A stretch of DNA of 64,000 nt from Candidatus Hydrogenedentota bacterium (GTDB lineage Bacteria > Hydrogenedentota > Hydrogenedentia > Hydrogenedentales > JAEUWI01), in assembly GCA_019637335.1 (NCBI GenBank), contig JAHBVV010000002.1, forward strand, positions 1-64,000, written 5' to 3'. The translations under genes and the position numbers were made by a program. Under the pieces are notes generated by a model. That model was not told where the DNA came from. It worked only from the letters and a program-made list of their open reading frames with translations, and did not search any database. Numbering within the stretch: position 1 is the first letter of the stretch; every line of letters starts with the position of its first letter. Of the stretch, positions 1-63,694 are shown one piece after another.

Positions 1-128
1 CTGCCGTCCCTGCCGTCCACCCCGTCCACTCTGTCCACTCTGTCCACTCTGTCCACTCTGTCCACTCTGTCCACTCTGTCCACTCTGTCCACTCTGTCCA
101 CCCCGTCCACTCCGTCCACCCCGTCCAC
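1..128. repeat. 9-bp minisatellite, locus 1
   Basis: Tandem 9-bp units, mostly ACTCTGTCC with CCCCGTCCA and CTGCCGTCC variants, fill the start of the window, so the left end of the array is not visible. The units share GTCC and the 9-bp period with the arrays near 4.5 kb, 29.9 kb and (inverted) 63.5 kb. The following bases to the next gene at 251 contain nothing recognisable. A 9-bp period keeps every reading frame open, so ORFs here are not evidence of coding. Confidence 0.9.
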
Positions 129-250
129 CCGCACCCCACTGCTACGCGCACGGACCCACCACGCACGGGTGCATTCTCTGGAATCCTCGGGGCCCTATCC
201 CGCACAATGAGCGGCGAATTGACCCGCACCAAACGGAACCCATCCAACCA

Positions 251-1261
251 ATGACCAACGCCCAACTCCCCGCCACCTACACCGGACCCGGCCTCGTCGA
301 CCTCCAGGTCAACGGCTACGCCGGCATCGATTTCAACGCCGACGACGGCGTCTTCAACCCTGAAACCTTCCACATGATCCGCGAGAAGATGGCCGCGCGC
401 GGCGTCCTCGTCTCCCTGCCCACCTTCATCACCGCCTCGCCCCAGCGCCTCGAAGCCAACTGCCGCGCCTACGCCAGACTCGTCGAAAACGGCGCCGAAC
501 TCGCCGCCGCCTTCCCGCTCCTCCACATAGAAGGCCCCTTCATCTCCGCGGAAGAAGGCCCGCGCGGCGCGCACCCCCTCGAACACGCCATCAACCCCGC
601 CGACGCCCCCGATCTCATGCGGCGCCTCCGCGAAGCCTCCGGCAACCGCCTCGGCATCGTCACGCTCGCCCCGGAACTCCCCGGCGCGCTCGATCTCATC
701 GCCTGGTGCCGCGAAAACAACATCGTCTCCGCCTGCGGCCACTGCAACGCCACCGCCGCGCAGATCCGCGACGCCGTCCAGGCCGGCCTCGTGATGTCCA
801 CCCACCTCGGCAACGGCTCGCACCAGACCCTCCCCCGCATGGACAACTACATCCAGGCACAGCTCGCAGAAGACGCCCTCTACGCCAGTTTCATCGCCGA
901 CGGCCACCACGTCCCCTTCTACACCCTGAAAAACTTTATCCGCGCCAAGCGCTTCGAGAAGACCGTCCTCGTCTCCGACGCTATCATGGCCGCCGACATG
1001 GGGCCGGGGACCTACAAACTCGGCGATTTCGAAGTCGTCGTCTCCGAGACCCTCCGCTGCACCAAGGCCGGCCACGCCGGACTCGCCGGCTCCGCCCTCA
1101 CCATGGACCTCGGCGTCATCAACACCGCACTCCACACCGACGCTACCTTCGAAGAAGCCTGGACCATGGCCTCCACCCGTCCCGCCGCACTCGTCGGCCT
1201 GGACGCGCCGGCGGAGGTGACGGTGGCAGTGAGCGCGGATGGATTTGAGCGGGTAACGTAG
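251..1261 (+). CDS. nagA: N-acetylglucosamine-6-phosphate deacetylase-like amidohydrolase
   Basis: Probable NagA, which removes the acetyl group from GlcNAc-6-phosphate in amino-sugar recycling in the cytoplasm. Visible motifs follow the family in order: LVDLQVNG near residue 15, HIEGPFIS with the metal-ligand Glu near 95, GHCNA and THLGNG supplying metal His residues, DGHHV in the substrate pocket, and VSDAI with the catalytic Asp. At 336 residues it is shorter than the usual 380 or so because it begins directly at the barrel and lacks most of the N-terminal beta-sandwich segment. No strong ribosome binding site precedes the ATG. The gene stands alone between repeat regions. Function within the amidohydrolase family is fairly secure; exact sugar specificity is inferred. 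Confidence 0.82.
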   Translation: MTNAQLPATYTGPGLVDLQVNGYAGIDFNADDGVFNPETFHMIREKMAARGVLVSLPTFITASPQRLEANCRAYARLVENGAELAAAFPLLHIEGPFISAEEGPRGAHPLEHAINPADAPDLMRRLREASGNRLGIVTLAPELPGALDLIAWCRENNIVSACGHCNATAAQIRDAVQAGLVMSTHLGNGSHQTLPRMDNYIQAQLAEDALYASFIADGHHVPFYTLKNFIRAKRFEKTVLVSDAIMAADMGPGTYKLGDFEVVVSETLRCTKAGHAGLAGSALTMDLGVINTALHTDATFEEAWTMASTRPAALVGLDAPAEVTVAVSADGFERVT

Positions 1262-1281
1262 GATAGGCGTCCCGCCTGTCC
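1261..1281 (+). repeat. GGATAG-type hairpin repeat, copy 1
   Basis: Arms GGATAGGCG and CGCCTGTCC enclose a TCC loop, giving a 9-bp stem with one G-U pair. Related copies lie at 24504-24525 (same strand) and, on the opposite strand, at 57065-57093 and 63005-63033. It begins at the last base of the nagA stop codon. Confidence 0.75.
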
Positions 1282-1310
1282 AGCTTTTAGGAATCTACTT
1301 TTTGCCGCGG

Positions 1311-4504: not shown

Positions 4505-4798
4505 TCAGTCGTCCCCGGTCCGTCGCGCCCAGGCGTCCCAGGCGTCCCTGCTGTCCCTGCTGTCCCTGCTGTCCCTGCTGTCCCTGCTGTCCCTGGCGTC
4601 CCTGGCGTCCCTGGCGTCCCTGCCGTCCCTGGCGTCCCGGCGCGCTGCCGTCCCTGCCGTCCCTGGCGTCCCTGCCGTCCCTGGCGTCCCGGCGCGCTGC
4701 CGTCCCTGCCGTCCCTGCCGTCCCTGCCGTCCCTGCTGTCCCTGCCGTCCCTGCTGTCCCTGCCGTCCCTGCTGTCCCTGCCGTCCCTGCCGCACCTT
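4505..4798. repeat. 9-bp minisatellite, locus 2
   Basis: About 30 units of CCCTGNNGT, where NN is CT, GC or CC, fill the gap downstream of the DUF4838 gene and end just before the next gene on the opposite strand. A higher-order block containing CCCGGCGCGCTGCCGT occurs twice (near 4637 and 4687), showing internal duplication. It is the same unit as the array at 29.9 kb. Confidence 0.92.
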
Positions 4799-5481: not shown

Positions 5482-6373
5482 GAGGAATCTCCCAATCCGA
5501 TCCCGAACCCACATCCAGCCAACACAACCACCATGGTAATCCAACCCGCCCCCACACACAACACACCATGGGAACTCGCTCCCGCGACACCAACCACCCA
5601 CGCCGCGAAAGCGCCCCACCCGCCCCAGGATCGCGGGCGCCTGCTCCGAGATTTCAAAGGGAGCCACGGGTGCCACGTTCAAGCTCCGCGGCACCGCCGC
5701 GAAGGCTTGAGCGTGCGAGACTCCAGGAGTGCGCCAACAGTCAGGGGCAGTATTTCATCCTTAATGGGTGACGCGAAGCGTCATGAAAGGCTACTCTGAA
5801 ATTCCAAAAGGAGCCACGGGTGCCACGTTCAAGCTCCGCGGCTCCGCCGCGAAGGCTTGAGCGTGCGAGACTCCAGGAGTGCGCAATCAGTCAGGCGCCG
5901 TAATTCATCCTTAATGGGTGACGCGAAGCGTTATGAAAGGCTGTACCCCTATAGGGACTGCGGCGCCCCATTACCTCGGATACGAGCAGCCCGCGCGGGA
6001 CCGAAAGCGCGCGCATCAAAACCGCTACACCGGCAACCGGCGCGGCTGTCCCGTCGCCCCCCAAAAAGCCCAGGGGGACTGGCTCCCGCGACACCAACCA
6101 CCCACGCCGCGAAAGCGCCCCAGCCGCCCCAGGATCGCGGGTGCCTGTACCCCCAAAAGCCAAAAGCAAAAGATTAAGCGTTTTTCATGGACAGAAGACG
6201 GGATATACTGGATTCGTACCGCGCATGACAAATAGTGACAAAAATCCGTCGCGCCCGCCACCCGGATCCAAAACCGAAAAATTCTCCAAAACCGTTGTAA
6301 AATAAGCCGTTTCATGATAACGTATCCGTAAGCAGCGTGGATCGTGCAACCCAACCATGCAGGGAGAGTTATC
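5482..6373. repeat. Composite dispersed repeat field (left copy)
   Basis: This gene-free stretch contains two direct copies of a roughly 143-bp unit at 5650-5792 and 5801-5943. Each includes AGCCACGGGTGCCACGTTC, a GC hairpin flanked by CAAGC and GCTTG, and GACGCGAAGCGTC. On both sides are copies of a second unit carrying CTCCCGCGACACCAACCACC and GCGAAAGCGCCCC (near 5575-5640 and 6075-6150). Both units recur inverted at 62.34-63.0 kb. No gene is visible; the short ORFs are repeat products. Confidence 0.88.
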
Positions 6374-24491: not shown

Positions 24492-24527
24492 TCCGCCGCA
24501 GGCGGAATAGGCGTCCCGCCTGTCCAG
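24492..24527. repeat. GC palindrome plus GGATAG-type hairpin, copy 2
   Basis: TCCGCCGCAGGCGGA (24492-24506) is a 15-base palindrome also seen at 31989, 32747 and 32818. It runs directly into a second copy of the GGATAG-type hairpin (24504-24525, one extra A), in the same orientation as the copy at 1261. Confidence 0.7.
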
Positions 24528-24670
24528 GGCCGAAGGCCCGCTTCATAGCAGCCTGGGCCGGAGGCCCAGGAAGACAAATTCGACAGAATATGAGGGCTGA
24601 AAGCCCGCTTCATAACTCCTGTCCAGAACAAACGTAGACAACACAAAACCCACCCCGAAGGCTTTACCCC

Positions 24671-29861: not shown

Positions 29862-30317
29862 GGTCCCTGCTGTCCCTGCTGTCCCTGCTGTCCCTGCTGT
29901 CCCTGTAGTCCCTGCTGTCCCTGAAGTCCCTGAAGTCCCTGCTGTCCCTGTAGTCCCTGTAGTCCCTGCTGTCCCTGCTGTCCCTGTAGTCCCTGTAGTC
30001 CCTGTAGTCCCTGTAGTCCCTGTAGTCCCTAGTCCCTAGTCCCTGTAGTCCCTGTAGTCCCTGTAGTCCCTGTAGTCCCTGTAGTCCCTGTAGTCCCTGT
30101 AGTCCCTGTAGTCCCTGTAGTCCCTGCTGTCCCTGTAGTCCCTGTAGTCCCTGCTGTCCCTGTAGTCCCTGTAGTCCCTGCTGTCCCTGTAGTCCCTGCT
30201 GTCCCTGTAGTCCCTAGTCCCTGCTGTCCCTGTCGTCCCTGTAGTCCCTGTAGTCCCTGTAGTCCCTGTAGTCCCTGTAGTCCCTGCTGTCCCTGCTGTC
30301 CCTGTAGTCCCTAGTCC
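29862..30317. repeat. 9-bp minisatellite, locus 3
   Basis: About 50 units of CCCTGNNGT, where NN is mostly TA, with CT and some AA, occupy nearly the whole gap before the nitronate monooxygenase gene. A few units are shortened to CCCTAGT. The dominant dinucleotide differs from locus 2, so each array has homogenised separately. Confidence 0.93.
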
Positions 30318-31441: not shown

Positions 31442-32254
31442 AACAGCATCCTGTCCACAACACGTGACCACCATCTCCCGGCCCGCCCCATCCCCCCTCC
31501 GCCCACCATCACCCAGGTGTGCCACAGACAAGCCCCCAAGCCTCGCCCGTGCAATACCACCAGCCCAATCAAGGGACGTACCGCCGCACAAACGCCAAAC
31601 CCAACCCACAACACCCAACGTCCAAACCACACACCCAACCCCACCCACAAACCCCACCAAGCGGGGGTACGTCCCGGCCAGAGTTATCCCCCGTCCGCCC
31701 ACCATCACCCCAAGCGTGCCACGGACAAGCCCCCAAGCCTCGCCCGTGCAATACCCGACCCACACGTTCACGCCCACCACCGCAGTCCGGTATAAACTGT
31801 CAACTGTCAACTGTCAACTGTCAACTGGCAACTTTCAACTGTCAACTGTCAACTGTCAACTGTCAACTGGCAACGACCACCCCTCCCGTGCCACGCGATG
31901 GCGCCCCAGCGCCTTCGTGTGCCAGGAGCAACACCAACCCACCACCTCCATCAACACCCCACACGAGCGGCGCAAAGGAGGCTAAAAGTCCGCCGCAGGC
32001 GGGTTGGGCATCCTGCCCGACGCAACAATAGCCCCCGACACCACAACACCCCACCCTTCTCCAACCCTCTCAAACCCCCGTGCCTCGCGATTCCGCCGCA
32101 AGCGGACTCGTGTGCCAGGAGCAACACCAACCCAACACCGCCACAACCACCCCACACGGGCGGATCAACTCCCAGAAAGCCGGACATCCTGCATGACCCA
32201 CCCTTTCACCACCCCTGTGCCAACTGTCAACTGTCAACTGTCAACTGCCAACTG
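31442..32254. repeat. Repeat-packed gene-free region at the island edge
   Basis: No gene is visible. Contents: a roughly 60-bp direct repeat (31499-31557 and 31693-31754, sharing GACAAGCCCCCAAGCCTCGC); copy 2 of the 102-bp inverted-repeat element at 31573-31675 with perfect GGGACGTAC/GTACGTCCC ends; heptamer GTCAACT runs at 31795-31874 and 32222-32256; a roughly 51-bp direct repeat (31919-31969 and 32111-32162, starting GTGCCAGGAGCAACACCAAC); and a GC palindrome at 31989-32002. Confidence 0.85.
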
Positions 32255-32897
32255 TCACCCGTCTTCACCCTCCGCAGGCGGCCCACGGCCAGCGCGCGGA
32301 GGCGGCGGCCGAGTTGGGCTTCCAACCTGCTCGGGAAGCTGGCCGTGCCCAGGGGGCGGCCGGTATGCGTGTTCCGGCGGGAAGGCCTCGGCAAAATCGG
32401 GGTCGATTCCCTGCGCCAGCACGTCGCGCCAGCACGTCGCGCCAGCACGTCGCGCCAGCACATCGCGCCAGCGGGCCTCGACGCCGTGGGCGTCGCGCCG
32501 GCGGTCGAGGTCGTGCAGGCCGTCGTCCTTTCGCTCCCCCACATGCGCCGACGCGCTGTACCACGGATAGCGCCGCGCATCCGCACCATCTTCGCGCGGT
32601 CGGGGTTCTGCTCGACGTAGTGCATCGCCTAGCCGTAGTGCGGCTCGTCCAGCGCGCAGGAGTGGAACCGCCCCAGCCAGAGATGCCCGCTGCGCTTGTG
32701 GAATTGGTTGACATACTGGCTGTAGCGCTTGTGCCGTCGCCGAAGGTCCGCCGTAGGCGGATTCCTCATCAGGCAGTGGCCGTGGATACGGATCCGGTAC
32801 CGCCTCACGGCCGAAGGTCCGCCGGAGGCGGATAGCTGCCACTCTGGGTGATGCGGTGGGGCTGCCCCGCCACCACGATGCGAGCAAGTCTTGGCAT
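32255..32897 (-). pseudogene. Decayed REP-associated tyrosine transposase (RAYT), relic 1
   Basis: Read on the minus strand from ATG 32897, the start PRLARIVVAGQPHRITQSG is the RAYT N terminus (usual motif HHITQRG). A stop follows, then, in shifted frames, IRIHGHCLM, KRYSQYVNQFHKRSGHLW and GRFHSCALDEPHY. The C-terminal LEAQLGRRLRALAVG comes last. The segment that should hold the HUH metal motif (TNHVH after YCLM) is gone. Both internal gaps carry the palindrome TCCGCCNNNGGCGGA (32747-32761 and 32818-32832). At least one stop and several frameshifts make it inactive. A hairpin end lies at 32935-32955, upstream of its start. Confidence 0.8.
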
Positions 32898-33290: not shown

Positions 33291-33334
33291 CTCGGCCTCC
33301 GTCGTGCAGTACGACACAACCACTTTCTTGCACA

Positions 33335-33700: not shown

Positions 33701-33844
33701 ACGCCCACCTCCGCGCCCTCCAGGACCACCGCCAGCGGGGTCAACTTCGAGCCCGACCGGATCCAGATCGTCACCTCCTCCTTCTCCACAAAGCATTCCC
33801 GGTTCCGCCCCGCGTTCTTCCATGTATCTTCTCTTGCATTGTCC

Positions 33845-35255: not shown

Positions 35256-35310
35256 CACTGCTCCTCATCTGACGGTGTCGATCCGGCAGGGCAATTATCT
35301 CCCGCATGCT

Positions 35311-35888
35311 CTGGAGTCCACGCGTCGGACACGCATCCTTCATCTTTGTTTCAATGCACGCCAGACTCCGTCACATCCTGCAAACGCACACTGTCCATGG
35401 CAATGCCATTGGGCTTGAGACCCGTCAATCGCACGCAAATAAAGATTGCGGTTCTCTCCTCATCCAGCTTGATGTCTTTCTGCGGAACAGAGCTCCCGCC
35501 CGAGCCGGTTTCGCTGACCACCCACGCGCCCGCGTCGCCGGCGCTATGGTCGGCGCGCCACGTCCTGACGTGCGATGCGCTCGACGCCAGTTCGCTCCAG
35601 GCGTCCGCATCCCGGACCCGCGTCGCCTCGTCCAGCTCATAGGAGCGGCCCATTGAAATCGCGCCAACCATGATATCGAAGGACCACTCCCCCGCAAAAT
35701 CCGCCGCTTCTTCCATCACCCGATAACGAATCGATGGCCGATAGATCTTTCCAGGCGTCTGGGCGATGAACGAGCGGTACAGGCCTCCCTGGCCACCGGT
35801 CCTGTCGCTAAGAACCAGCTGCGCGCTACGCCGAACGTTCGCCCTGCCGGAATCAAGCGGCGGCGCCAACCAGTCATCCGAGAACGGC
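35311..35888. repeat. 578-bp near-identical direct repeat, copy 2
   Basis: Second copy of the block at 33845-34422. Homology of the flanking gene bodies drops abruptly at its upstream edge (35888), where codons for PFSDDW are shared and the next residues differ. Confidence 0.93.
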
Positions 35889-36715: not shown

Positions 36716-36789
36716 TTAAACTGCTCCTTACATACTAACAAACCGACGCCTGGATAACCCAATCCCTCGTCTGTTAACCTAGTAGTTAT

Positions 36790-37045
36790 CGATAGATTCA
36801 CCCTTTCTCGCTGATCCGCCGCTTGCCAAGAACTGCCATACCCGCAACGTAGCACAAGCGCGCCCGCCCGTCAATAGCCCCCCGGTGTACGCGCCCCGCC
36901 GATCGGGGCAAGGCATACTTCCCCATCAAAGAATGCCCGTGAACATGGATGCGCTGGACTCCCCCCCCCCTCCCGCTGCACGATAGGGTGCGGCGCCCCC
37001 GGCGCCACGATGCGTGCAAGCCTGGGGACGGCGAAAGTGTCGCGT
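36790..37045 (-). mobile_element. RAYT element relic 3
   Basis: In the 380-bp gap upstream of paralogue B, the minus strand reads VPRLARIVAPGAPHPIVQR (near 37032-36975) followed by RIHVHGHSLMGK, a RAYT N terminus with the same internal deletion as relic 1 and the start ATG changed to GTC. It continues into the conserved promoter P3 and AGCGAGAAAGG. A run of ten C residues (36961-36970) marks the deletion site. Confidence 0.65.
36846..36874 (-). promoter_or_regulatory. Relic-borne promoter P3
   Basis: TTGACG (36874-36869), a 17-base spacer and TACGTT (36851-36846) on the minus strand, about 130 bases upstream of the paralogue B start codon. Confidence 0.6.
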
Positions 37046-37096
37046 GAAGGCGGGCAGATATAGAGGACATTGTGTGCCGGAATCTCATACTCAAAG

Positions 37097-38479: not shown

Positions 38480-38769
38480 GAGCCTCTCCTTTCTCGCCAT
38501 TCCGCCGCATTCCCGAAAACTGCCATACCCGCAACCTAACACAAGCGCGCCGCCCGTCATTAGCCCGCCCCGGGCACGCGCCCCGCTGAACGCGACAAGG
38601 CTTTCATTGCGCCCAGGCGATACCCCTGGATACAGAGCCCCTGCGGTTCCGTCCCGGCCTCACGATAGGGCGCGGCGCTCCCGCCACGACGATACGAGCA
38701 ACTCTGGTTATCGAGTTAGCCCAACTCAGAGGCAGGTAGTAGTTCGTAATAGATGGCTGTTCCTATTAC
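38333..38769 (-). mobile_element. RAYT element relic 4, both hairpin ends present
   Basis: A 437-bp non-autonomous copy. Ends: hairpin TAGGG/CCCTA with loop ACATCCATG (38343-38361) and hairpin GTAATAG/CTATTAC with loop ATGGCTGTTC (38746-38769), inverted relative to each other. Inside, the minus strand reads RVARIVVAGAPRPIVRPGRN (degenerate RAYT N terminus), then promoter P4 and the AAAGGAGAGG-ATG at 38479. It sits directly upstream of the Sel1 lipoprotein gene. Confidence 0.7.
38533..38560 (-). promoter_or_regulatory. Relic-borne promoter P4
   Basis: ATGACG (38560-38555), a 16-base spacer and TAGGTT (38538-38533) on the minus strand. It aligns with P2 and P3 but is weaker. It is 54 bases upstream of the ATG at 38479. 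Confidence 0.45.
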
Positions 38770-38781
38770 TCCTCCTTTTGA

Positions 38782-39513
38782 TTAATTGATGTCGAAAAAA
38801 CCGCCTAACTCCAGTGCATTCAGATATATAGAAACACTAAGCTCTCGCCTGGGAAGCTCCCCTTCCTCGATCATCGCGTGATTTGCTGCCTGCAACTTCG
38901 CTAGCTCGTCCCGACTCAGGTTTCTAAGTCCTGGAATCGGAGTCGCGATCTGGCCAACCAGGGTAGGTTTAAGTGGATCGAAATGTTCGCCATTGACACT
39001 ATCTAATTTGCCCAAAATTCTCTTGCAATAGTCAAAATACAAATCTACCTCCAATCGTAAGCCGGCCAATTCCCAGCTCAAGAGCAGCCCCACTATGTCA
39101 TTAGGGTCCTTAGCGAGCCGATCGTCCGCTAACGCCGAAATTAAATCGAATTCCCCCCTATTCCACCTCTCGGTCAAATGATCAGATTGTGGCGTGGGCT
39201 CGGGGAAACCGCTCTCACTCAACTCGAATAGCCTTTGAAGAGATTCTGCTTTCTCCTCTACACTATAGTCATATTTGGCTAGTAATTTTGATAAATCTGG
39301 CGCATCAACAATCGCAATGTTTTGACCGGCCTGCGAATCACGAGGGCCAGAATCTGGTACTGACGTCTCGACTGCGTGGCCAGGCGCCGTTGAATCAGAG
39401 CTCGGTACGCGCACATCGGCTGTATCCGACCTGAAATACGGAATTGTTCCGAGCGCGATCAGCAACAAGAGGAACGCCAGCCCGATACCCAACTTCTTGT
39501 TTCTTCTATTCAT
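38782..39513 (-). CDS. Membrane-anchored protein of unknown function
   Basis: A 243-residue protein with a basic N terminus and one hydrophobic helix (KKLGIGLAFLLLLIALGTIPYF), followed by a Ser/Pro-rich linker and an acidic helical domain (DLSKLLAKYDYSVEEKAESL onward). The start at 39513 has AGAGGAA about 8 bases upstream; an ATG at 39558 is less likely. Codon and base composition are richer in AT than in flanking core genes, suggesting recent acquisition. I do not recognise the family. Confidence 0.62.
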   Translation of the reverse strand: MNRRNKKLGIGLAFLLLLIALGTIPYFRSDTADVRVPSSDSTAPGHAVETSVPDSGPRDSQAGQNIAIVDAPDLSKLLAKYDYSVEEKAESLQRLFELSESGFPEPTPQSDHLTERWNRGEFDLISALADDRLAKDPNDIVGLLLSWELAGLRLEVDLYFDYCKRILGKLDSVNGEHFDPLKPTLVGQIATPIPGLRNLSRDELAKLQAANHAMIEEGELPRRELSVSIYLNALELGGFFDIN

Positions 39514-39579
39514 TGTGGAAATTCCTCTGCCCAGTCTAGTAGTTCGCATCCGGGCCATGCTAATGCGATCAAGCGCATC

Positions 39580-39714
39580 CTACCAAACCATCTCCCGTAC
39601 GTCATATAAAGAAATTCCGCCAATAACGACACAGAGCAGGGCAAACCCAGAGTCTAACAACAATGCGCGAGCGCCGAACTCTCTGGGCAAAATAGGTCCA
39701 GACAACGATTCCAT
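39580..39714 (-). CDS. Possible 44-residue single-helix membrane peptide
   Basis: A short frame reading ESLSGPILPREFGARALLLD and then FALLCVVIGGISLYDVREMVW, with one hydrophobic segment. GGGGAGG abuts the ATG directly, too close for an efficient site, so this may be the 3' remnant of a longer membrane-protein gene. It lies between the propeller protein and the membrane-anchored protein on the same strand. Confidence 0.3.
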   Translation of the reverse strand: MESLSGPILPREFGARALLLDSGFALLCVVIGGISLYDVREMVW

Positions 39715-39747
39715 CCTCCCCTTCCGAGCGCCCCCACACACGCCGCA

Positions 39748-41988
39748 CTATTCCGCCCCAATCACCCAGGGCATCGGCGGGCCGTCGTAGGGGGGCGCGC
39801 CCTGGCCCGGCTGGATCGCGGGGGGCTCGAGGTGCGCGGGGTCGTCGGTGTCGGGCGGGAGGATCATCCCGTGGCAGCGGGCCATCCAGTAGGCGTCGAG
39901 CCAGCCGGAGGGATCGGCGACTTCGCGCCCGCCATGCCCCCCGCGCACGTCGAGCGAGGAGTCCGTCCATCGGATGGCCCCGCGGGAACGCGGCGAGTAC
40001 GGCCGCCCGCGGCGCGCATAGGGGATGTAGCCGCGCGGCGGGAGGCGATCGGCGCGGTAGGAGTTGTCCCACGCATGGCTGACCAGGTCGAGGGGCCACT
40101 CGCGGAGATGCTTGACGGCCTGGGGGATCTCGCAGTCGTTGCCGGTGACGGCGCCGTAGATGAAGTTGAACCAGGGAATCTGCTCGATCCGCTCAATCTC
40201 GAAGCTGCGCTCCAGGCTGCGGCGGTAGTAGGATCGCAGGTAGGGGTCGGTCTCATACCGCAGCAGGGGGTAATACGTGAAAAAGGCCAGGCGGTCGTCG
40301 GAATCGAAGAGGTACGCCGGCGCCGTCAGCTTCTGGCGGATGACCTCGCGGTGGTAGCCGCGCCCGACCAGCTCCTCCAGCCCCGCCTCGAACTTCGGGT
40401 CGCCCGTCAGGTGGATGGCCGTGCGGAGGTAATTGAGCACCTCGAGCCCGTTCAGGCCCCGCGCGTGGCCGCCCCGCTCGCTCGCGAAGTATTCCGGGTC
40501 CCACCGCCCCCAGACCGTCGGCTCGCCGTCCAGATCCCGCAGGGACCACCCGCTGTCCATGATGTGCGACATGATCCGGTGGATGTGCTCGCGCACGAGC
40601 GCCTTCTCCCGATCATTCGCCACGCGATCGTGGAAGATACTCGCGTAGTAGAAATGCGCGTCGATCTCGTCGCTCGACGTGTCCCCCTTCCAGGCCCACT
40701 GGCCGTCCGGCGTCGGGTTCCACTCCGCGGGGAAACCCCCGGACCCGCCCTCGGCGCGGTGACCCGTTTCTCCCGCCGCCCAGAGCGATCGCGCGGGAAA
40801 GCCGGGAATCGGCGTGATCTCTTCCGACCACTTCAGCGCGTTGAACCCGGCCACCGCCTCGCGCCGCGCTTGCTCGTCGCCCGTCGCGGCGTATTTGAAG
40901 GCCTGCGCCGCCCAGTAATGCGTGCTCCAGCCCACGTCGTTGTCGCTGACTTCCCGGCGCCATTCCCCCGCCGCCTCGTTCCACTCCAGCTTGTGCACAA
41001 AGGCCATCCGCTTTTGGCCCCACGCCTCCAGGCGCCGCTCGTAGTAGGCGGCTTTCTTCCGCAGCGTCCACGGCTCATACCGCACGATGCCCAGGCCCTT
41101 GTTCGTGGCGATGTATACGGTGTCGTCCGACGCATGGATCGCGTTCACCCGGTCATCCGGCAGCCAGCGCGCCCCGGCGAAGTAGTGGAAGTCATCCTCC
41201 AGCACGCGCACCGCCCCGCGCGTCCCCGCCATCCAGAAGTCCCGCGCGAAGCCCGGCGCCAGCGCCACGCTCTCCTCGTAGGGCAGCCCGTCGGACCCGA
41301 GGATCTGCGTCGCCGCGCTCCCCCGCAGCACGCCCAGCCCCGCATGCGACGCCACGATCAACCGGCTCCCCACCGCGAGCACGTCCCGCAGGTCCTTCGA
41401 GGGAAACGCGCCGAAATCCACCACATCCCCGTGGCTATACGCGCGCCCGTCGAAGGTGAAGAGGCGGTCGTAGGCCAGGCAGTAAATCGTCTCCGCATAA
41501 CTCGTGATCGCCTGGATCGGCCCCGGGCTTGCCTCCGCGCCCGGGATCGGCGCCAGGCCATCCCCCGCCACCCGGTACAGCGCCCCCGGCGACGCCACCA
41601 CCAGTTCCCCCGCGTGCCGCACGATACCCACATAGCGCCCTTCCGCGATCCGGGTCCAGCGCGCGCCGTCAAAGCGGTGCAGCCCGGTCTTGGTCAACGT
41701 CCACAGCGCCCCGTCGATCACGCGCATCCGCTCGACATACTCCGCCGGCGCGCCCGGCGCCGGCTCGAAGCGATCGCCCGCGCCCACAATCCGAACGCCA
41801 TCCCCGAAGCCGCCATAGACCGCGCCATCAAGTTCCGCCACCGCCCACACCGGCTTGTCCGACGGGATCTGCCGACCAACTTCCTGGAGGTACACCGAAT
41901 CGCGCACCGGCGTCCAGTTCGGCGATTCCGCCGGTGCGACCACCGCGATGCAGACGATAAGAGCGCCGAATCCAATCCGTTTCCACAT
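39748..41988 (-). CDS. Secreted beta-propeller plus alpha-toroid protein
   Basis: A 746-residue exported protein (signal WKRIGFGALIVCIAVVAPAE). Residues 30-310 contain short repeats of the type GALWTLTKTGLHRFDGARW, resembling the propeller of two-component regulator periplasmic domains. From about 320 the protein is helical with many Trp, Tyr and His residues (WSTHYWAAQAFKYAATG, DSGWSLRDLDGEPTVWGRWD), which suggests an alpha/alpha-barrel related to polysaccharide lyases or hydrolases. Substrate is unknown. The C terminus is Pro-rich. It lies divergent from mtnA, with 144 bp between the two. Confidence 0.7.
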   Translation of the reverse strand: MWKRIGFGALIVCIAVVAPAESPNWTPVRDSVYLQEVGRQIPSDKPVWAVAELDGAVYGGFGDGVRIVGAGDRFEPAPGAPAEYVERMRVIDGALWTLTKTGLHRFDGARWTRIAEGRYVGIVRHAGELVVASPGALYRVAGDGLAPIPGAEASPGPIQAITSYAETIYCLAYDRLFTFDGRAYSHGDVVDFGAFPSKDLRDVLAVGSRLIVASHAGLGVLRGSAATQILGSDGLPYEESVALAPGFARDFWMAGTRGAVRVLEDDFHYFAGARWLPDDRVNAIHASDDTVYIATNKGLGIVRYEPWTLRKKAAYYERRLEAWGQKRMAFVHKLEWNEAAGEWRREVSDNDVGWSTHYWAAQAFKYAATGDEQARREAVAGFNALKWSEEITPIPGFPARSLWAAGETGHRAEGGSGGFPAEWNPTPDGQWAWKGDTSSDEIDAHFYYASIFHDRVANDREKALVREHIHRIMSHIMDSGWSLRDLDGEPTVWGRWDPEYFASERGGHARGLNGLEVLNYLRTAIHLTGDPKFEAGLEELVGRGYHREVIRQKLTAPAYLFDSDDRLAFFTYYPLLRYETDPYLRSYYRRSLERSFEIERIEQIPWFNFIYGAVTGNDCEIPQAVKHLREWPLDLVSHAWDNSYRADRLPPRGYIPYARRGRPYSPRSRGAIRWTDSSLDVRGGHGGREVADPSGWLDAYWMARCHGMILPPDTDDPAHLEPPAIQPGQGAPPYDGPPMPWVIGAE

Positions 41989-43203: not shown

Positions 43204-43205
43204 CG

Positions 43206-54893: not shown

Positions 54894-55114
54894 GAAATTA
54901 CCATCCTCGGGTTCACGTAGCCGCCGGCGACCGCTTTCCGCCGACGACCTACATTATAGGGCTCCGCGCGATTTCTTACAAGACGGCGTCCGCGAGGCCA
55001 AATTCCGCCCGATATTAAAGGCCGAATTCGCCAAGAAGGTTCCAACACACCGGGCTTCCGGGCTGTGCTATCCTTCCGGCTGACGATCTGGACGCGCAGC
55101 GGAGGGATATATTC

Positions 55115-55870
55115 ATGAAGCATGACCGCCATCGCGGACGCTGGGCCGCCGCGGCCGCAATAACGGGTTTGGCGCTTGGCGCCCTTTTTCTCTGGCGGGT
55201 GCTCCCGTCCGGCGGGCCGGTCCCGGAGGGCGTTCCCACGGCGCCGCCGGCCGGGGAGGGCTGGCTCAATCTCCTGGACGCGGCGCACGCGGGCGGCTGG
55301 CGCAATATCACGGATGACGCGACCATTTTTGAGATCCAGGATGGAACGCTGCACATTTTCGGCAAGAGCTTCTACCCGTTGCGTTATGTCGCCTGGGAGA
55401 CGGAACGCCTCGCCGATTTCGAACTTCACCTCGAATACAGGGTGGCCCGGCGCGCGAACAGCGGGGTGTTTCTGCGCGCGCAGCCCAACGATCCGGTGCA
55501 TCGCGGTTTTGAGGTCCAGGTGCTGGATGATTTCGGGTCCGCGCCGCACAAACGCGGCGCGGGCGGGATCTACGACGTGGTTACGCCGATGTTCAACCTG
55601 GCGCGCCCGGCGGGCGAATGGAACAGCTTCGACATCCGGGTGGCGGGCCCTCATGTGACGGTGCGGCACAACGGGTGGCTTGTGGTGCAGGCCGATCTCT
55701 CGCAAATGACCGAGCCGCTGGGCAAATTCGAGATCCCGTTCGCGGAATTGCCGGGCGAGGGGCTTCTCATGCTGCAAGACCACGGCGGGGCCGTCTGGTA
55801 CCGGAACATCTTTATCAGGAAGCTGCCGGGGGTGGCGTCTGGCTCAGTTTTTCCTCCAGCAGCAGATTAA
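55115..55870 (+). CDS. Membrane-anchored DUF1080 (3-keto-disaccharide hydrolase-like) protein
   Basis: A 251-residue protein with an N-terminal helix (AAAAAITGLALGALFLWRVL) and a DUF1080 beta-sandwich. Visible motifs: FELHLEYRVARRANSGVFLR, RGFEVQVLDD, WNSFDIRVAGPHVTVRHNG and LMLQDHGGAVWYRNIFIR. Family members are concanavalin-like domains; some hydrolyse 3-keto-glycosides, fitting the many Gfo/Idh oxidoreductases here. The 3' end overlaps the convergent channel gene by 56 bp. Confidence 0.85.
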   Translation: MKHDRHRGRWAAAAAITGLALGALFLWRVLPSGGPVPEGVPTAPPAGEGWLNLLDAAHAGGWRNITDDATIFEIQDGTLHIFGKSFYPLRYVAWETERLADFELHLEYRVARRANSGVFLRAQPNDPVHRGFEVQVLDDFGSAPHKRGAGGIYDVVTPMFNLARPAGEWNSFDIRVAGPHVTVRHNGWLVVQADLSQMTEPLGKFEIPFAELPGEGLLMLQDHGGAVWYRNIFIRKLPGVASGSVFPPAAD

Positions 55871-56687
55871 GCTCCTTGCTCAACCGGGCGATCCGGGCGT
55901 CGAGGGATTCGGACTCGCCCTCGCCGCCGTGCCGCTTGAGTTCCTGGTTGTGCACTTCCTGATAGTTGTTCAGGACCGCGCCAACGACGAGGTTGATGAG
56001 CAGGAAGGTGCTGAGCATGATCCAGGAAACGTGGTATACGGTGACTATCCAGTAATTGCCGTGCGGAAGCCCGTCGTAGCGCAGGTCGGTCCAGTCTTCG
56101 CAGGTGAGCGAACGAAACAGGGAGAAAAATGCTTCGTGCAGGGTGCCGTACTCCATGGGCTGTCCCTTGCCGAAGAGCTCGACGCCGAGGACGGCGTAGA
56201 GGTAGAAGCAGATGGACATCAGCACGGCGATATAGAGCATGGAGGAGAGGGAACGGATCAACACCGATACGATGAGGCGCAGTTCCGCGAGGCCGTCCAC
56301 GAGGCGGAGCACCCGAAATACGCGGAGCACGCGGAGCAGTGTGGCGAAGGTGGAAATATTGGGCAGGAAGGCCGAACCGACGACGATTATGTCGAAAATG
56401 TTCCATCCGCTGGTGAAGAATTCTCGCAGGCCCTTACGGGCGTAGAATTTGAGGGCCAGTTCGGCGACAAATATCCAGATACAAACCCATTCGATGGCCT
56501 TGAATACCGGCAGCCGGTGGTAGGTGGAGGCCCCGATCAACATCGCGTTCAGCAGGATAACGCCGAGGATGATCCGGCCGAACAGCGGGCTGTTTATGAA
56601 CGCTTTCAGCCGCGATTGTCCGCCGCTATCCTGGCTGCCGTTGGAACAGGGGTACTCGTCGTTCTGGTTGAGATCGAGGGCGTTCAT
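55815..56687 (-). CDS. Single-domain voltage-gated cation channel
   Basis: A 290-residue, six-helix channel of the NaChBac/BacNav type, working as a tetramer. S4 is LLRVLRVFRVLRLV (Arg 119, 122, 125, 128). The pore loop reads FFSLFRSLTCEDWTDL, so the filter is TCEDW rather than the TLESW of NaChBac. S6 is MLSTFLLINLVVGAVLNNY, and a C-terminal helix (LDARIARLSKELNLLLEE) fits the bundle seen in this family. ATG 56687 was preferred to an upstream in-frame start. The two acidic filter residues recall calcium-selective channels; selectivity is inferred. Confidence 0.9.
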   Translation of the reverse strand: MNALDLNQNDEYPCSNGSQDSGGQSRLKAFINSPLFGRIILGVILLNAMLIGASTYHRLPVFKAIEWVCIWIFVAELALKFYARKGLREFFTSGWNIFDIIVVGSAFLPNISTFATLLRVLRVFRVLRLVDGLAELRLIVSVLIRSLSSMLYIAVLMSICFYLYAVLGVELFGKGQPMEYGTLHEAFFSLFRSLTCEDWTDLRYDGLPHGNYWIVTVYHVSWIMLSTFLLINLVVGAVLNNYQEVHNQELKRHGGEGESESLDARIARLSKELNLLLEEKLSQTPPPAAS

Positions 56688-57160
56688 TCGATTTCTCCGG
56701 GGTAATAGGACGGCTATCGGGACTGCTGAACAGGTGGGCGGTATGGCTGCGTCGGGTGGCCTGCAACACCCGATCACGCGGCGCGCGATGCACGACGCGG
56801 TAGTGTATCAAAAGTGCTGGAAAACAAAAAAACGCGGCAAAGCCAGAGGCGCGTGGGGGCGAGGTAAGGGGGCGTGATCGTGAGGCGCGCGGTGTTGGGA
56901 TTGCGCTTTTTTTCGGCCAATGTCCCGGTCGTGTTGGCGTATGGCGGGTGTTGGGTCAGGCAAGGATGCCCAACCTCCTTTGACGCCGCTCGTTTGAGGG
57001 GCTGTTGGAGGATTGGGCTTGTGCCGCCGCGGAGTGCCCGGGATCCTTGCGCGCCGTTGGCGCGGTGGACAGCCGGGACGGCTATCCTACATTTGCGCCT
57101 TTCGGCGCTGAATACAGCCTGGACACCCGCCGTGGCGGCGGGTGCGGGCGTTGGGGCACA
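56688..57160. other. Gene-free stretch upstream of polB
   Basis: No gene is visible. It contains one right-hand copy of the GGATAG-type hairpin (57065-57093, minus orientation), identical over 29 bases to that at 63005-63033, and an inverted pair around 56953-56982 (GTTGGG, GCCCAAC). The plus-strand promoter of the polymerase must lie here but no clear -35/-10 pair was identified. Confidence 0.6.
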
Positions 57161-59464
57161 ATGTCGCGCATGAGTTCCCCCCCATGTACGGCCTTTATTC
57201 TGACGCGCGAGGAGATTGACGCGCCGCGCGGCATCATCTTGCGGTATTGGGCGACGAGCGCGGGCGGGCCGGTGCTGCTGGAGTTTACGGGGCAGGAAGC
57301 GGTTTTCTTTGCGCCGCGCGATGTGGAGGTCCCGGGGGGGCGCCGCAGCCCGCTGGCCCTTCGCACCTTGGATGGCCGCCCGGTGGACGGGCTGTATTTT
57401 CGGTCGATCCGGGCGTTGCGGCGCGCGCGGGAGGCCTTGCGGGACACGGGCCTGGCGTGCGAAAGTGACATTCGCCCGGCGGACCGGTTTCTCATGGAGC
57501 GCTTCATTACGGGGCCGGTTCGGATCACGGGCGAACCCATCGCGCGGACCGGATACCGGCTGTATGTCAATCCCGCGATAGAGGCGGCGCCCCAGGAAAC
57601 TCCGGCATTCCGGGTGGCGTCGCTGGACATTGAAACCGAAGGTCTGGACGGGGCGCTGTATTCGATTGCGGTTCGCTGCGGGGACGAATCGGCGGTGTTC
57701 CTGGTGGGTTCGGGGCCGGATGCGGGCGCGCTCCGATTCCTGCCGGACGAGCGCGCCGCTATCCGGGCGTGGCTCGATTGGATGGCCTGGGCGGATCCGG
57801 ATTTGATTGCGGGGTGGAATGTGGTGGCGTTCGACCTGCGCTTTCTGGCGGACCGTTGCAAGCGGATTGGATTGGCGTTCGCGCTGGGGCGCGATGGCGC
57901 ACACGCGCGCGTGTATCCCGGGCAGCGGGCGCGGCAGCCGGCCCGTGCGGACATTCCGGGGCGGGTGGCGATCGACGGGATCCCGGCATTGCGGACCGCG
58001 GGCTACCATTTCGAGGACTTCAGCCTGGAGGCGGTTGGGCAGGCGCTGCTGGGCCGCGGCAAGCTCATCGGGCCGGAAACGGACCGGGCGGCGGAGATCA
58101 CGCGGCTGTATGAATGCGATCCGGCGGCGCTGGCGGCCTACAACCTCGAGGATTGCGACCTGGTGCTTGATCTGTTCGCGCACACGGGGCTGATCCCGTT
58201 CCTGGCGACGCGGGCGGCGCTCACGGGGCTGGCGCTGGACCGGATGCCGGGATCGATCGCGGCGTTTGAATACCAGTACCTGCCGCGCCTGCACCGGCGG
58301 GGTTATGTGGCGCCGGATGTGCAGCCGCACCCGGAGGCGAATCCGAATCCGGGCGGCTACGTGCTGGATTCGACGCCGGGCCTTTTTGACAACGTGCTGG
58401 TGTTCGATTTCAAGAGCCTGTACCCGAGCATCATCCGGACCTTTCACATCGATCCGCTTGCGCTGCGGCAGCCGGGCCCGGATCCGCTTCCGGGCTTCCA
58501 CGGGGGATCCTTTTCGCGCGAGGAGACGATCCTGGGCGGGCTAATCGAGACGCTCTGGTCGGCGCGGGAGGAGGCGAAGCGCCGGGGCGACCATTCGCTG
58601 AACCTGGCGACGAAGATCCTGATGAACGCGTTTTACGGTGTGCTGGGGACGCCGGCCTGCCGCTTCTACGATCCGAAGCTGGCGGCCTCGATTACGCGGC
58701 GGAGCCACGAGATTATGCTCCGGACGCGCGATCGCATTGAACAGGAGGGCCACCCGGTGATCTATGGGGATACGGACAGCCTGTTCGTGGCGCTTGGCGG
58801 CGGCTACAGCGAGGCGTCGGCACTGGCGCGGGGGCGCGAACTGGCGCCGGCGATTAACGCCTGGTGGCGGGAGATTATCGCGCGGGAGTTTCGGGTTCCG
58901 TCGTTCCTGGAGCTGGAATTCGAGACGTGCTACCTGAAATTCCTGATGCCGACGATCCGGGGATCGAGCGAGGGGACGAAGAAGCGGTACGCGGGGCTGC
59001 GGCGGGCTTCGGACGGGACGCTGGATGTGACGTTTCGCGGGCTGGAGAGCGTGCGGTCCGACTGGACGCCGCTGGCGCGGAACTTTCAGCGGGCGCTTTA
59101 CCGGAAGGTGTTTCTCGGGGAGCCGTGGGAGGACTACGTTTACCGGACGGCGCGGGATTTGCTGGCGGGACGTCTGGACGGCGAGCTGGTGTACCGCAAG
59201 CGCCTGCGGAAGGGCCTTGAGGAATACACGCGAAACGTCCCGCCGCAGGTGCAGGCGGCGCGGAAGATCCCGGGGTTTTCGGGGAGCGTGGTGCACTATG
59301 TGATCACGGTGCACGGTCCGGAGCCTTCGCAATTGCGCGATAGCCCGATCGACTACGCGCACTATCTGGATCACCAGCTTGCTCCGGTGGCCGACGCGAT
59401 CCTGGGATTTCTCGGGTCGAGCTTCACGCGGGTTGCGGATCCGCAGCTCTGGTTTCCGGAGTAG
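57161..59464 (+). CDS. Family B DNA polymerase
   Basis: A 767-residue polymerase of the PolB/Pol II type. Exonuclease motifs: SLDIETEG (ExoI, near 155), GWNVVAFDLRFL (ExoII) and AAYNLEDCDLVLDL (ExoIII). Polymerase motifs: DFKSLYPSII (A, near 415), KILMNAFYGVLG (B, near 488) and YGDTDSLFV (C, near 534). All catalytic acids are present, so proofreading and synthesis should both work. Probably a translesion or repair polymerase, as in proteobacterial Pol II. ATG 57161 or 57170 are the likely starts; further upstream the frame runs through a repeat. Confidence 0.92.
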   Translation: MSRMSSPPCTAFILTREEIDAPRGIILRYWATSAGGPVLLEFTGQEAVFFAPRDVEVPGGRRSPLALRTLDGRPVDGLYFRSIRALRRAREALRDTGLACESDIRPADRFLMERFITGPVRITGEPIARTGYRLYVNPAIEAAPQETPAFRVASLDIETEGLDGALYSIAVRCGDESAVFLVGSGPDAGALRFLPDERAAIRAWLDWMAWADPDLIAGWNVVAFDLRFLADRCKRIGLAFALGRDGAHARVYPGQRARQPARADIPGRVAIDGIPALRTAGYHFEDFSLEAVGQALLGRGKLIGPETDRAAEITRLYECDPAALAAYNLEDCDLVLDLFAHTGLIPFLATRAALTGLALDRMPGSIAAFEYQYLPRLHRRGYVAPDVQPHPEANPNPGGYVLDSTPGLFDNVLVFDFKSLYPSIIRTFHIDPLALRQPGPDPLPGFHGGSFSREETILGGLIETLWSAREEAKRRGDHSLNLATKILMNAFYGVLGTPACRFYDPKLAASITRRSHEIMLRTRDRIEQEGHPVIYGDTDSLFVALGGGYSEASALARGRELAPAINAWWREIIAREFRVPSFLELEFETCYLKFLMPTIRGSSEGTKKRYAGLRRASDGTLDVTFRGLESVRSDWTPLARNFQRALYRKVFLGEPWEDYVYRTARDLLAGRLDGELVYRKRLRKGLEEYTRNVPPQVQAARKIPGFSGSVVHYVITVHGPEPSQLRDSPIDYAHYLDHQLAPVADAILGFLGSSFTRVADPQLWFPE

Positions 59465-61490: not shown

Positions 61491-62313
61491 TGCGCGGGCG
61501 GCGGTGCTGTTGCTTGCGGCGGTGATCGGGGGCGCGGCGCGGGCCGGGGAGCCGGTGGTGGCGGTGCATATGGTTGAGGGCCCGCACCAGCCGGGTCCCG
61601 TGGCGATCGAGGTGGTCGCGCCGGATGTGCTGGCGCCCGATGTGCGCTATCCGGTGTTGTACCTGCTTCCGGTGGAGCCGGGAACCGGGGAGAAGTATGG
61701 CAGCGGCATACGGGAAGCGGCGCGGGGCGATCTGGCGAACCGGCACGGGGTAATTTGCGTGGCTCCGGCGTTTGCGGCAACGCCGTGGTACGGGGATCAC
61801 CCGAGCGATCCCGGATTGCGGCAGGAGAGCCACTTCATTGAGACGGTTTTGCCGTGGGTGGAAGCCCACTATCCGGCGGAGCCTTCGCGGGGCGGGCGCT
61901 ATCTTCTGGGGTTCAGCAAATCGGGCAATGGGGCGTTCATGCTGCTGCTCCGACACCCGGATCTTTTTGAGCGGGCGCTGGCGTGGGATGCGCCGGTCGG
62001 GAAGATGCGGCCCGATCAGTTTGGGATGCTTGCGGTGTTCGGCACGGATGCGCATTTTGACGGGTATGCGATCCCGCGCCTTCTCGCGCCGCGCGCGGCG
62101 ATGCTCCGCGAGGGCGGGCCCCGGTTTGTGTTGATGCCGGACCGGCAGGGCGATCATGGGATGGAAATGGTGCGGTATTTGATGGTGGCGCTGGGGATTC
62201 CGCACGGGTACGCGGAAACGGATGGCTGCCGGCATCATTGGGAGAGCGGTTGGGTGGCGCGGGCGGTGGAACTGTTGCTGGAAGGTGTGGGGGTGGCGCC
62301 GGGGCGGGAGTGA
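61483..62313 (+). CDS. Secreted alpha/beta-hydrolase, esterase-D-like
   Basis: A 276-residue protein with a signal peptide (AAVLLLAAVIGGAARA) and an alpha/beta-hydrolase fold. The nucleophile elbow is LLGFSKSGNGAF. YPVLYLLPVEPGTG at the start and WVEAHYP before the elbow resemble Fes/feruloyl esterase-type proteins. A His near the end (HHWESGW) could complete the triad. Substrate unknown. The ATG at 61483 overlaps the kinase stop, so the two genes are probably translationally coupled. Confidence 0.78.
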   Translation: MRDARAAVLLLAAVIGGAARAGEPVVAVHMVEGPHQPGPVAIEVVAPDVLAPDVRYPVLYLLPVEPGTGEKYGSGIREAARGDLANRHGVICVAPAFAATPWYGDHPSDPGLRQESHFIETVLPWVEAHYPAEPSRGGRYLLGFSKSGNGAFMLLLRHPDLFERALAWDAPVGKMRPDQFGMLAVFGTDAHFDGYAIPRLLAPRAAMLREGGPRFVLMPDRQGDHGMEMVRYLMVALGIPHGYAETDGCRHHWESGWVARAVELLLEGVGVAPGRE

Positions 62314-63694
62314 TTTTTGGGTTTTTCTGCGGGTACAGTCTTTCATGACGCTGCGCGTCACCCTGAGGTGATGAATTACGGCGCCTGACTGTTGGCGCTC
62401 TACTGGAGTCTCGCACGCTCAAGCCTTCGCGGCGAAGCCGCGGAGCTTGAACGTGGCGCCCGTGGCTCCCTTTGAAATCTCGGGGGCGGGTACAGTCCCC
62501 CGCGAGTTGAGGGTGGTTTGGGGCGCTTTCGCGGCGTGGGTGGTTTTTGTCGCGGGCTCCAGTCCCCTTGGGGGCGACGGGACAGCCGCGCCGGTTGGCG
62601 GTGTTGTGGGTTGGTTGGGCTCGCTTTGGGTCGCGTGTGGGCTGTTGGTACCCGGGGTGATGGGGCGCCGCAGTCCCTGGGGCGGGTGCGCGTGGGACGT
62701 TTTTCTGCGGGTACAGGCACCCGCGATTCTGGGGTGGTTTGGGGCGCTTTCGCGGCTGGGGTGGTTTTGATAAAGGGCCAGTCCCCTGGCAGCGCCCACT
62801 TGATTTGAAGGAGTGGGGCGCTTTCGCGGCTGGGGTGGTTGGCGTCGCGGGAGCCAGTCCCCCTGGCGGCGCCCGCGATTTGGGGGGGGTGGGGCGCTTT
62901 CGCGGCTGGGGTGGTTTGCGTCGCGGGAGCCAGTCCCCCTGGCGGCGCCCGCGATTTGGGGGGGTGGGGCGCTTTCGCGGCTGGGGTGGATTGCGTTGCA
63001 ATCCGTGGACAGCCGGGACGGCTATCCTACATTGCAGTTGTGGTTATAGAAGGTTGTCCGGCGCCGGACTTATGCGGGTGATTGGCGGTTTTAACCTTGG
63101 GTCAGACAATCGACGCGCGGGGGTGTCTGGCAGTATCGTGGTGCGGAATAGCCGGCATACGCCCAGTGGTAATCCGCCAGTACAGAGCCCGCGTCTGAAC
63201 GTTGTAAGGGGACGAGGTGGCAAACGCGATCGAAGTTCCCCGTCAATCACCTATTAATTGGGATGGGGCGTTGCTGTTTTTTTAGGCTTTAGGCTTTAGG
63301 CTGGAGGCTATAGGGCACGGTCAAGCTACCGCGCGGCTGGGGCCGCGCCGCTTGGCCGTGGCACACCCGGAGGGGGGCGGGGGTATTTGACAGTTGACAG
63401 TTGACAGTTGACAGTTGACAGTTGACAGTTGACAGTTGACAGTTGACAGTTGACAGTTGACAGTTGACAGCAGGGACAGCAGGGACAGCAGGGACAGCAG
63501 GGACAGCAGGGACAGCAGGGACAGCAGGGACAGCAGGGACGGCTGGGACGGCTGGGACGGCTGGGACGGCTGGGCCGGCTGGGGAGGTTGGGAGGGCTGG
63601 GTGGCTGGGTGGCTGGGAGGGTTGGGGCGGTTGGTGTGGGCTGGGTGGGCTGGGTGGCTGGGACGGCTGGGAGGGTTCTGTGGTGTGGTTTTCG
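62314..63694. repeat. Right-hand repeat field
   Basis: No gene is visible in 1.38 kb. In order: an inverted copy of the 143-bp unit (62338-62481); inverted copies of the second unit with CGCTTTCGCGGC and GTCGCGGG/CCCGCGA stems, including three near-identical units of about 75 bp at 62825-62990; a GGATAG-type hairpin (63005-63033); a TTGACAG heptamer run (63388-63467); and the minus-orientation 9-bp minisatellite, CAGGGACAG then CTGGGACGG units (63468-63665). All families also occur on the left side, in the opposite orientation. Confidence 0.88.

What the first reader, a model, noticed from the sequence alone, without database searches (positions are those of the whole stretch)
1..63665. Four intergenic repeat families share one orientation on the left and the opposite on the right
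Seen: (1) the 9-bp CCCTGNNGT-type arrays read this way on the top strand at 1-128, 4505 and 29862 but on the bottom strand at 63468; (2) heptamer GTCAACT is top-strand at 31795 and 32222, bottom-strand at 63388; (3) the 143-bp unit is direct at 5650 and 5801, inverted at 62338; (4) the GGATAG-type hairpin is top-strand at 1261 and 24504, bottom-strand at 57065 and 63005. The families are unrelated in sequence, so a shared polarity suggests that replication or a DNA-translocation process fixes their orientation, as for KOPS or Chi. The alternative is a local inversion.
Basis: partly seen in the sequence, partly recalled or inferred. Interest (0 to 1): 0.75.

Follow-up and report, generated by a model that had tools for sequence, protein, structure and literature searches.

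The report
Intergenic repeats aligned with DNA strand
Several families of short repeated DNA in this unnamed bacterium mostly point the same way relative to the strand composition of their neighbourhood, probably because DNA copying treats the two strands differently; the switch seen in this window is best read as a local rearrangement, not a change of chromosome arm.

Summary
In 2.39 of 7.16 Mb held (stretches chosen around repeats), five probes (9-mer arrays, heptamer arrays, the 143-bp unit, two hairpin variants) read on the C-rich strand of their domain: 48 of 55 clusters in negative-skew and 60 of 65 in positive-skew domains; 138 of 174 against local skew, above each of 20,000 domain-flip shuffles. 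Gene direction does not explain it; nor does composition for the GC-balanced hairpins and unit. The hairpins are GTAG-tagged REP sequences; four copies flank one RAYT-like gene among 12 Y1 transposase matches. The flip inside the window is not a replichore switch: skew reverses near 55-56 kb and again near 81-82 kb, and synteny with one same-genus genome breaks at 56.5-57.2 kb. Mechanism (inferred): replication-fork asymmetry acting on single-stranded repeat DNA. Against generality: heptamer arrays elsewhere show no polarity (48 of 88). Origin, terminus and leading strand were not established.

The parts
15..128 (+). 9-mer array, unit GTCCACTCT
   Evidence: unit differs from the GTCCCTGNN arrays
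4534..4792 (+). 9-mer array GTCCCTGNN
29863..30312 (+). 9-mer array GTCCCTGNN, about 50 copies
63466..63567 (-). 9-mer array, abuts the heptamer array
31795..31874 (+). heptamer array GTCAACT
32221..32257 (+). heptamer array GTCAACT
63387..63470 (-). heptamer array GTCAACT
   Evidence: 47 matches in the genome, 40 of 115 candidates scored
62332..62488 (-). about 157-bp unit, inverted
1258..1281 (+). GTAG-tagged REP hairpin, variant B
24505..24525 (+). degenerate B-type hairpin without GTAG
24526..24570 (-). Acido-Lenti-1 (RF01687) match beside the degenerate hairpin
57067..57090 (-). GTAG-tagged REP hairpin, variant A, within the interval of the synteny break
63007..63030 (-). GTAG-tagged REP hairpin, variant A
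62716..62996 (.). 76-bp tandem unit; similar sequence lies upstream of some copies of the 157-bp unit
55000..57240 (.). left edge of the rearranged block: 1-kb GC skew goes from -0.098 (54 kb) through +0.058 (55 kb) to +0.182 (56 kb); matches to G001 change contig between 56498 and 57240

Best explanation
The families are intergenic repeats: GTAG-tagged REP hairpins with candidate RAYT/Y1 transposases in the same genome, a structured 157-bp unit, and 7- and 9-bp tandem arrays. They lie with one fixed strand on the C-rich (A-rich) strand of each compositional domain. SHOWN: the polarity in the held third of the genome, its independence of gene direction, that it holds for GC-balanced families, the REP anatomy, and that the flip in this window coincides with the edge of a rearranged block in which skew and repeats are both reversed. 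INFERRED: the compositional domains are replication strands; the G/T-rich strand is leading; the better-folding strand of REPs and of the 157-bp unit is kept off the lagging-strand template, either because removal by Y1 enzymes or slippage is strongest there or because insertion is polar; later rearrangements then carry repeats and skew together, giving many local flips.
For: Clusters against local skew: 138 of 174; domain-flip shuffles mean 87.1, maximum 132 of 20,000. At |skew| >= 0.1: REP-A 16/18, REP-B 11/11, heptamer 12/12, 9-mer 19/19, 157-bp unit 10/10. Segmented domains: 48/55 and 60/65. 9-mer arrays GTCC(CTG/ACT)NN: 51 of 52 at |skew| >= 0.03. Skew is regional, with a small gene-strand effect, and gene strands are near balance in each skew class. 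REP-A and REP-B (8 G, 8 C) and the unit consensus (46 G, 46 C) are GC-balanced, so composition predicts no bias for them. GTAG 5' of 59 of 61 A and 65 of 70 B copies; 6 inverted A/B pairs; 12 Y1_Tnp matches; a REP_Tyr_transpos-like gene flanked by four REPs on C40. T.G wobbles in REPs and kept U.G pairs in the 157-bp unit favour folding of the read strand. IS200/IS605 orientation follows replication (review PMC5371812, passages); sedentary integrons keep the folding attC strand on the leading-strand template, 25/30 (PMC5371416, passages).
Against: No origin or terminus was located, and skew is only a proxy. Marker genes do not settle the leading strand: the rRNA operon on C25 reads on the G-rich strand, the EF-Tu/tRNA cluster on the C-rich one; of 9 housekeeping-motif hits, some doubtful, 4 are on the G-rich and 5 on the C-rich strand; of 29 tRNA/tmRNA genes 14 are on the G-rich strand. 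If G-rich is leading, the REP strand is on the leading-strand template, opposite to the IS608 rule. Folding differences are small (REP -7.7 against -6.4, unit -33.6 against -32.4 kcal/mol) and one 9-mer type (CC) folds better on the other strand (0 against -6.4). Misoriented heptamer arrays are not shorter (median 49 against 42 bp, p 0.77); REP copy number only tends that way (p 0.09). In neutral domains (1,019 of about 2,408 kb) 21 + and 33 - cannot be assigned. REP-B is weak overall (26/37); two REP-A copies at |skew| >= 0.1 disagree, one of them beside the C40 RAYT. Heptamer arrays of other genomes show no polarity (41/75 cyanobacterial, 7/13 other).
Confidence: 0.55

Rival explanations
1. 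Local inversion or transposition alone: the repeats have no intrinsic polarity; the right-hand cluster simply arrived in an inverted block.
For: Skew reverses at about 55-56 and 81-82 kb; the 6 repeat clusters counted in that block are all reversed; matches to G001 change contig at 56.5-57.2 kb.
Against: Explains this window but not the common orientation of separate copies across the contigs sampled. At the right edge the two G001 matches keep the same strand but swap order, so a simple inversion relative to G001 is not shown.
Confidence: 0.3
2. Polar insertion by Y1/HUH transposases at the fork: REPs (and perhaps the 157-bp unit) enter one strand only, as IS200/IS605 elements do.
For: 12 Y1_Tnp matches and REPs around the C40 gene; IS608/ISDra2 precedent; tandem REP arrays forward at about 2 Mb and reverse at about 4 Mb in P. 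fluorescens (PMC3116915 section 12).
Against: With G-rich as leading, the REP strand is on the leading-strand template, the reverse of the IS608 rule; I know of no transposase for 7- and 9-bp arrays, and the 9-mers show the strongest polarity.
Confidence: 0.3
3. Composition: C-rich units are simply commoner on C-rich strands.
For: The 9-mer and heptamer units carry more C than G, and the 9-mer shows the strongest polarity; composition may add to it there.
Against: REP-A, REP-B and the 157-bp unit are GC-balanced yet polarised; GCATTCGTGTGCATTGGTGT has a G excess (+0.40) on the strand found in C-rich domains, 13/13.
Confidence: 0.05
4. Transcription: repeats are oriented with neighbouring genes, as terminators or RNA elements.
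For: Most sites lie between genes; the hairpins could terminate transcription.
Against: Where skew and co-directional flanking genes disagree, 24 of 33 sites follow skew; between convergent or divergent genes 72 of 87 follow skew (sums over the four families; neighbouring copies counted singly). The gene caller was simple and some calls may be wrong.
Confidence: 0.05

Closest known systems
REP/BIME/REPIN repeats with RAYT (TnpA-REP) transposases
   Same: 5' GTAG, short imperfect hairpin, many mostly intergenic copies, some inverted A/B pairs, tandem arrays, a RAYT-like gene flanked by REPs
   Different: Strong agreement with skew domains; the passages seen in Di Nocera 2013 (PMC3733652) and Quentin 2018 (PMC6006769) show no such test. 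The C40 gene scores below the NCBIfam cut-off.
IS200/IS605 insertion sequences (IS608, ISDra2)
   Same: Y1 transposases present; orientation tracks replication (review passages)
   Different: Repeats are short non-coding units; polarity would be opposite if G-rich is leading
Short tandem heptamer repeats (GGGAATC of Xanthomonas, GGGGAYT of Nostoc; PMC4692102 passages)
   Same: 7-bp intergenic arrays
   Different: That paper reports no leading/lagging preference for GGGAATC; here 12/12 at |skew| >= 0.1
BRE repeats of Bordetella (PMC3110155 passages)
   Same: short repeats, some in tandem
   Different: reported as not co-oriented with the replication fork
Sedentary integron attC arrays (PMC5371416, passages)
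   Same: A folding strand oriented relative to replication, kept on the leading-strand template
   Different: Analogy only; no integron was looked for here

Membership tests
GTAG-tagged REP | GTAG 0-2 nt 5' of a hairpin with a paired stem of 7 or more | tested here: met
   GTAG precedes 59 of 61 A and 65 of 70 B copies; stem GATAG(C/G)C/G(G/C)CTGTC has one T.G wobble, so it is 7 pairs only if wobble is allowed. Window copy 24505 lacks GTAG. Definition from PMC6006769 passages.
GTAG-tagged REP | many intergenic copies | tested here: met
   213 matches with 2 or fewer mismatches; 71 of 80 listed sites lie outside called genes
GTAG-tagged REP | inverted doublets (REPIN/BIME) | tested here: met
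   6 inverted A/B neighbour pairs within 150 bp among 131 copies; a minority arrangement
RAYT (TnpA-REP) | Y1 HUH transposase gene flanked by REPs | tested here: met
   C40:49655-49882, HVH motif, three REPs on one side and one inverted on the other; the other 11 Y1 loci showed no A/B-type REP within their 1.5-kb flanks
RAYT (TnpA-REP) | curated family score | tested here: inconclusive
   NF047646 64.7 bits, E 7.9e-18, cut-off 80
RAYT (TnpA-REP) | cleavage of single-stranded REP | not testable with these tools
   needs biochemistry
157-bp unit as a known RNA family | Rfam match | tested here: not met
   no match at E <= 1 in window 5500-6100
KOPS / Chi | short recognition motif polarised from origin to terminus and used by FtsK or RecBCD | not tested
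   origin and terminus not located; no motif or protein test was run

The most novel reading that the evidence does not exclude
A largely sequence-independent rule acts in this genome: many intergenic repeat families (the five probes plus further 20-mers at 9/9 to 13/13, some of which may be parts of the same composites) survive or insert in one orientation to the replication fork, so that repeat orientation records fork direction and misoriented blocks mark recent rearrangements.
Probability: 0.35. Interest if true: 0.75.

Novelty: new variant of a known kind. Interest (0 to 1): 0.55.

Why it matters
Replication-coupled orientation is documented for IS200/IS605 and for integron arrays; a genome where REPs, a structured 157-bp unit and simple 7- and 9-bp arrays all obey one strand rule would tie repeat birth or survival to fork asymmetry, and would give an alignment-free marker of rearrangements in draft genomes. 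It contrasts with Xanthomonas heptamers and Bordetella BRE repeats, for which no such preference was reported.

Tried and rejected
Gene direction as the cause: rejected. Composition: rejected for the GC-balanced families, possibly contributory for the arrays. Replication origin inside the window at 42-56 kb: rejected as the main reading because skew reverses again near 82 kb, and the three PF00308 (DnaA-type) matches lie on C16, C3 and C1, none on C2. Array-length test of the stability model: not supported. Exact B hairpin in relatives: 0 of 59, three of them same-genus, so polarity was not tested in relatives. Marker genes for the leading strand: no answer. Rfam match for the 157-bp unit: none. 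The first RAYT script read minus-strand loci on the wrong strand and crashed; replaced. Skew of +-10 kb mislabelled C2:199046 as discordant; at 1 kb it lies in a positive block.
Full report
WHAT WAS CHECKED. The window is contig C2:1-64000 of an unnamed 7.16-Mb draft genome of 55 contigs, completeness 96%. The listed arrays, units and hairpins are present on the stated strands, with the corrections given under the observation check. No call named the organism.

GENOME-WIDE MAPS. The 143-bp unit has 47 matches, from 40 of 115 candidates scored. The 9-mer pattern has 408 hits, the heptamer pattern 285, the hairpin 213 at 2 or fewer mismatches; the first two count overlapping frames, and lists are cut near 100 rows. 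From listed rows (adding) I made 191 sites and fetched 20-kb stretches around them. Against GC skew of the flanking 20 kb (700 bp masked on each side), orientation agreed in 63 of 80 hairpin, 28 of 35 heptamer, 40 of 47 unit and 27 of 29 9-mer sites: + where the top strand is C-rich, - where it is G-rich.

STATISTICS. After adding stretches I held 91 blocks, 2.39 Mb, and rescanned them with fixed patterns. Counting clusters: REP-A 31/40, REP-B 26/37, heptamer 26/33, 9-mer 32/35, unit 15/17 (strict pattern, 19 copies); at |skew| >= 0.1, 16/18, 11/11, 12/12, 19/19, 10/10; below 0.05 there is no signal. The result barely depends on window size: 137-143 of 174 for half-windows of 1.5 to 20 kb. Because clusters in one domain are not independent, I flipped whole domains: 138 of 174 observed, shuffles 87.1 +- 15.2, maximum 132 in 20,000; domain votes 33 of 44 with 8 ties, strong domains 17 of 19 with 2 ties. 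A three-state segmentation gives 48 + and 7 - in negative domains, 5 + and 60 - in positive, 21 + and 33 - in neutral ones. Stretches were chosen around repeats, so this is not a random third of the genome.

NOT GENES; NOT COMPOSITION FOR THE BALANCED FAMILIES. Third-position skew of 1,135 called genes (overlapping stretches counted twice) depends on region (slope 2.03) far more than on gene strand (-0.093), and gene strands are near balance in each skew class. Summed over families, where co-directional flanking genes conflict with skew, 24 of 33 sites follow skew; between convergent or divergent genes 72 of 87 do. The gene caller is home-made (coding fraction 0.74). REP-A and REP-B have 8 G and 8 C, the unit consensus 46 and 46; the heptamer and 9-mers have more C than G. 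A scan of repeated 20-mers gave 51 groups: several more are fully polarised at |skew| >= 0.05 (13/13, 13/13, 12/12, 11/11, 10/10, 9/9, 9/9), one of them with a strong G excess on the strand found in C-rich domains; some of these are likely parts of the same composites; others are not polarised (7/12, 7/10, 4/8). Direction was chosen by majority for each 20-mer there.

WHAT THE REPEATS ARE. The hairpins read GTAG-GATAG(C/G)C-GTCCC-G(G/C)CTGTC, with one T.G wobble that is an A.C mismatch on the other strand; GTAG is present in 59 of 61 A and 65 of 70 B copies. They occur singly, in tandem arrays, in composite units, and as 6 inverted A/B pairs. The genome has 12 Y1_Tnp matches, all over the Pfam cut-off. 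The one at C40:49655 has an HVH motif, matches REP_Tyr_transpos (64.7 bits, under the cut-off of 80), and lies between three REP-A copies on one side and an inverted one on the other; the other 11 loci showed no A/B-type REP within 1.5 kb. This is a REPtron-like layout as described in PMC6006769 (passages). GTAG repeats are known in Planctomycetes and Verrucomicrobia (PMC3733652 passages). The exact B hairpin is absent from 59 relatives searched. The 157-bp unit is a conserved element (mean column identity 85%, 24 copies) with a long two-part stem; U.G pairs are kept (for example 24 of 24, and 23 U.G plus 1 C.G of 24), so the read strand folds better; covariation is slight (2 of 28 pairs), and no Rfam family matches. 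9-mer arrays GTCC(CTG/ACT)NN follow skew in 51 of 52 cases at |skew| >= 0.03.

THE FLIP IN THIS WINDOW. Along C2 the skew is about -0.2 (1-40 kb), near 0 (42-55), positive (55-82), negative for most of 82-192 kb, positive 192-201, near 0, then negative from 362 kb. Both edges of the 56-81 kb block are sharp in 1-kb bins, and the 6 repeat clusters counted inside (REP-A, heptamer, 9-mer) are all reversed, as is the 157-bp unit at 62332. In G001 of the same genus, 45.4-56.5 kb aligns collinearly with C9 while 57.2-73.1 kb aligns with C87, and C9 runs on past that point (a match at C9:29928). At the other edge 77.4-79.9 and 82.0-83.6 kb both match G001:C44 on the same strand but in swapped order. 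So the block is rearranged relative to G001, though a simple inversion is not shown. There are 17 sign flips inside held blocks by the segmentation, more than one origin and one terminus would give.

MECHANISM. GC and AT skew are anticorrelated (-0.82), so one strand is rich in G and T, as leading strands usually are (general knowledge). If that holds, the read strand of the repeats is the leading-strand template. [quoted passage not shown] I therefore favour loss or turnover of the better-folding strand on the lagging-strand template over simple polar insertion, with modest confidence: array length does not differ by orientation for heptamers, REP copy number only tends to, and one 9-mer type folds better on the other strand. 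Leading-strand assignment is unproved: the rRNA operon of C25 reads on the G-rich strand, but EF-Tu with five tRNAs, AtpD, GyrB and one GroEL-like ORF read on the C-rich one, and 14 of 29 tRNA/tmRNA genes are on the G-rich strand.

GENERALITY. GGGAATC heptamers of Xanthomonas (PMC4692102 passages) and BRE repeats of Bordetella (PMC3110155 passages) were reported without fork preference. Polarity is thus not a property of heptamers as such; whether it holds in the genus is untested. Literature searches (listings, and passages of the papers cited) showed me no report of several intergenic repeat families sharing one replication-strand polarity; subscription journals are largely missing, and a paper directly on transposon orientation (Gomez 2014) was not held.

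Noticed in passing
window 24526-24570; L249 322-375, 501-554, 875-928, 1988-2041; L248: Rfam's Acido-Lenti-1 'sRNA' (28 matches in the genome, 9 over cut-off) lies around an IS200-type Y1 transposase on C4 (four matches); GGGCC hairpins lie near another on C3, where no Rfam match reached the cut-off. It may be a mobile hairpin rather than an sRNA.
   Followed up: partly
held stretches of G000: Further fully polarised 20-mers, such as CTTCGTGCCCTTCGTGGTGA (13/13) and ACCGGCGCGGCTGTCCCGTC (12/12).
   Followed up: no
G000:C2:192000-201000: A second small block of reversed skew with a sharp left edge, carrying a B hairpin in the matching orientation.
   Followed up: partly
window 33000-40000: A stretch of lower G+C (0.56-0.61) beside the near-neutral skew region, possibly an island.
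   Followed up: no
window 57005-59461: A family-B DNA polymerase gene lies at the left edge of the rearranged block.
   Followed up: no
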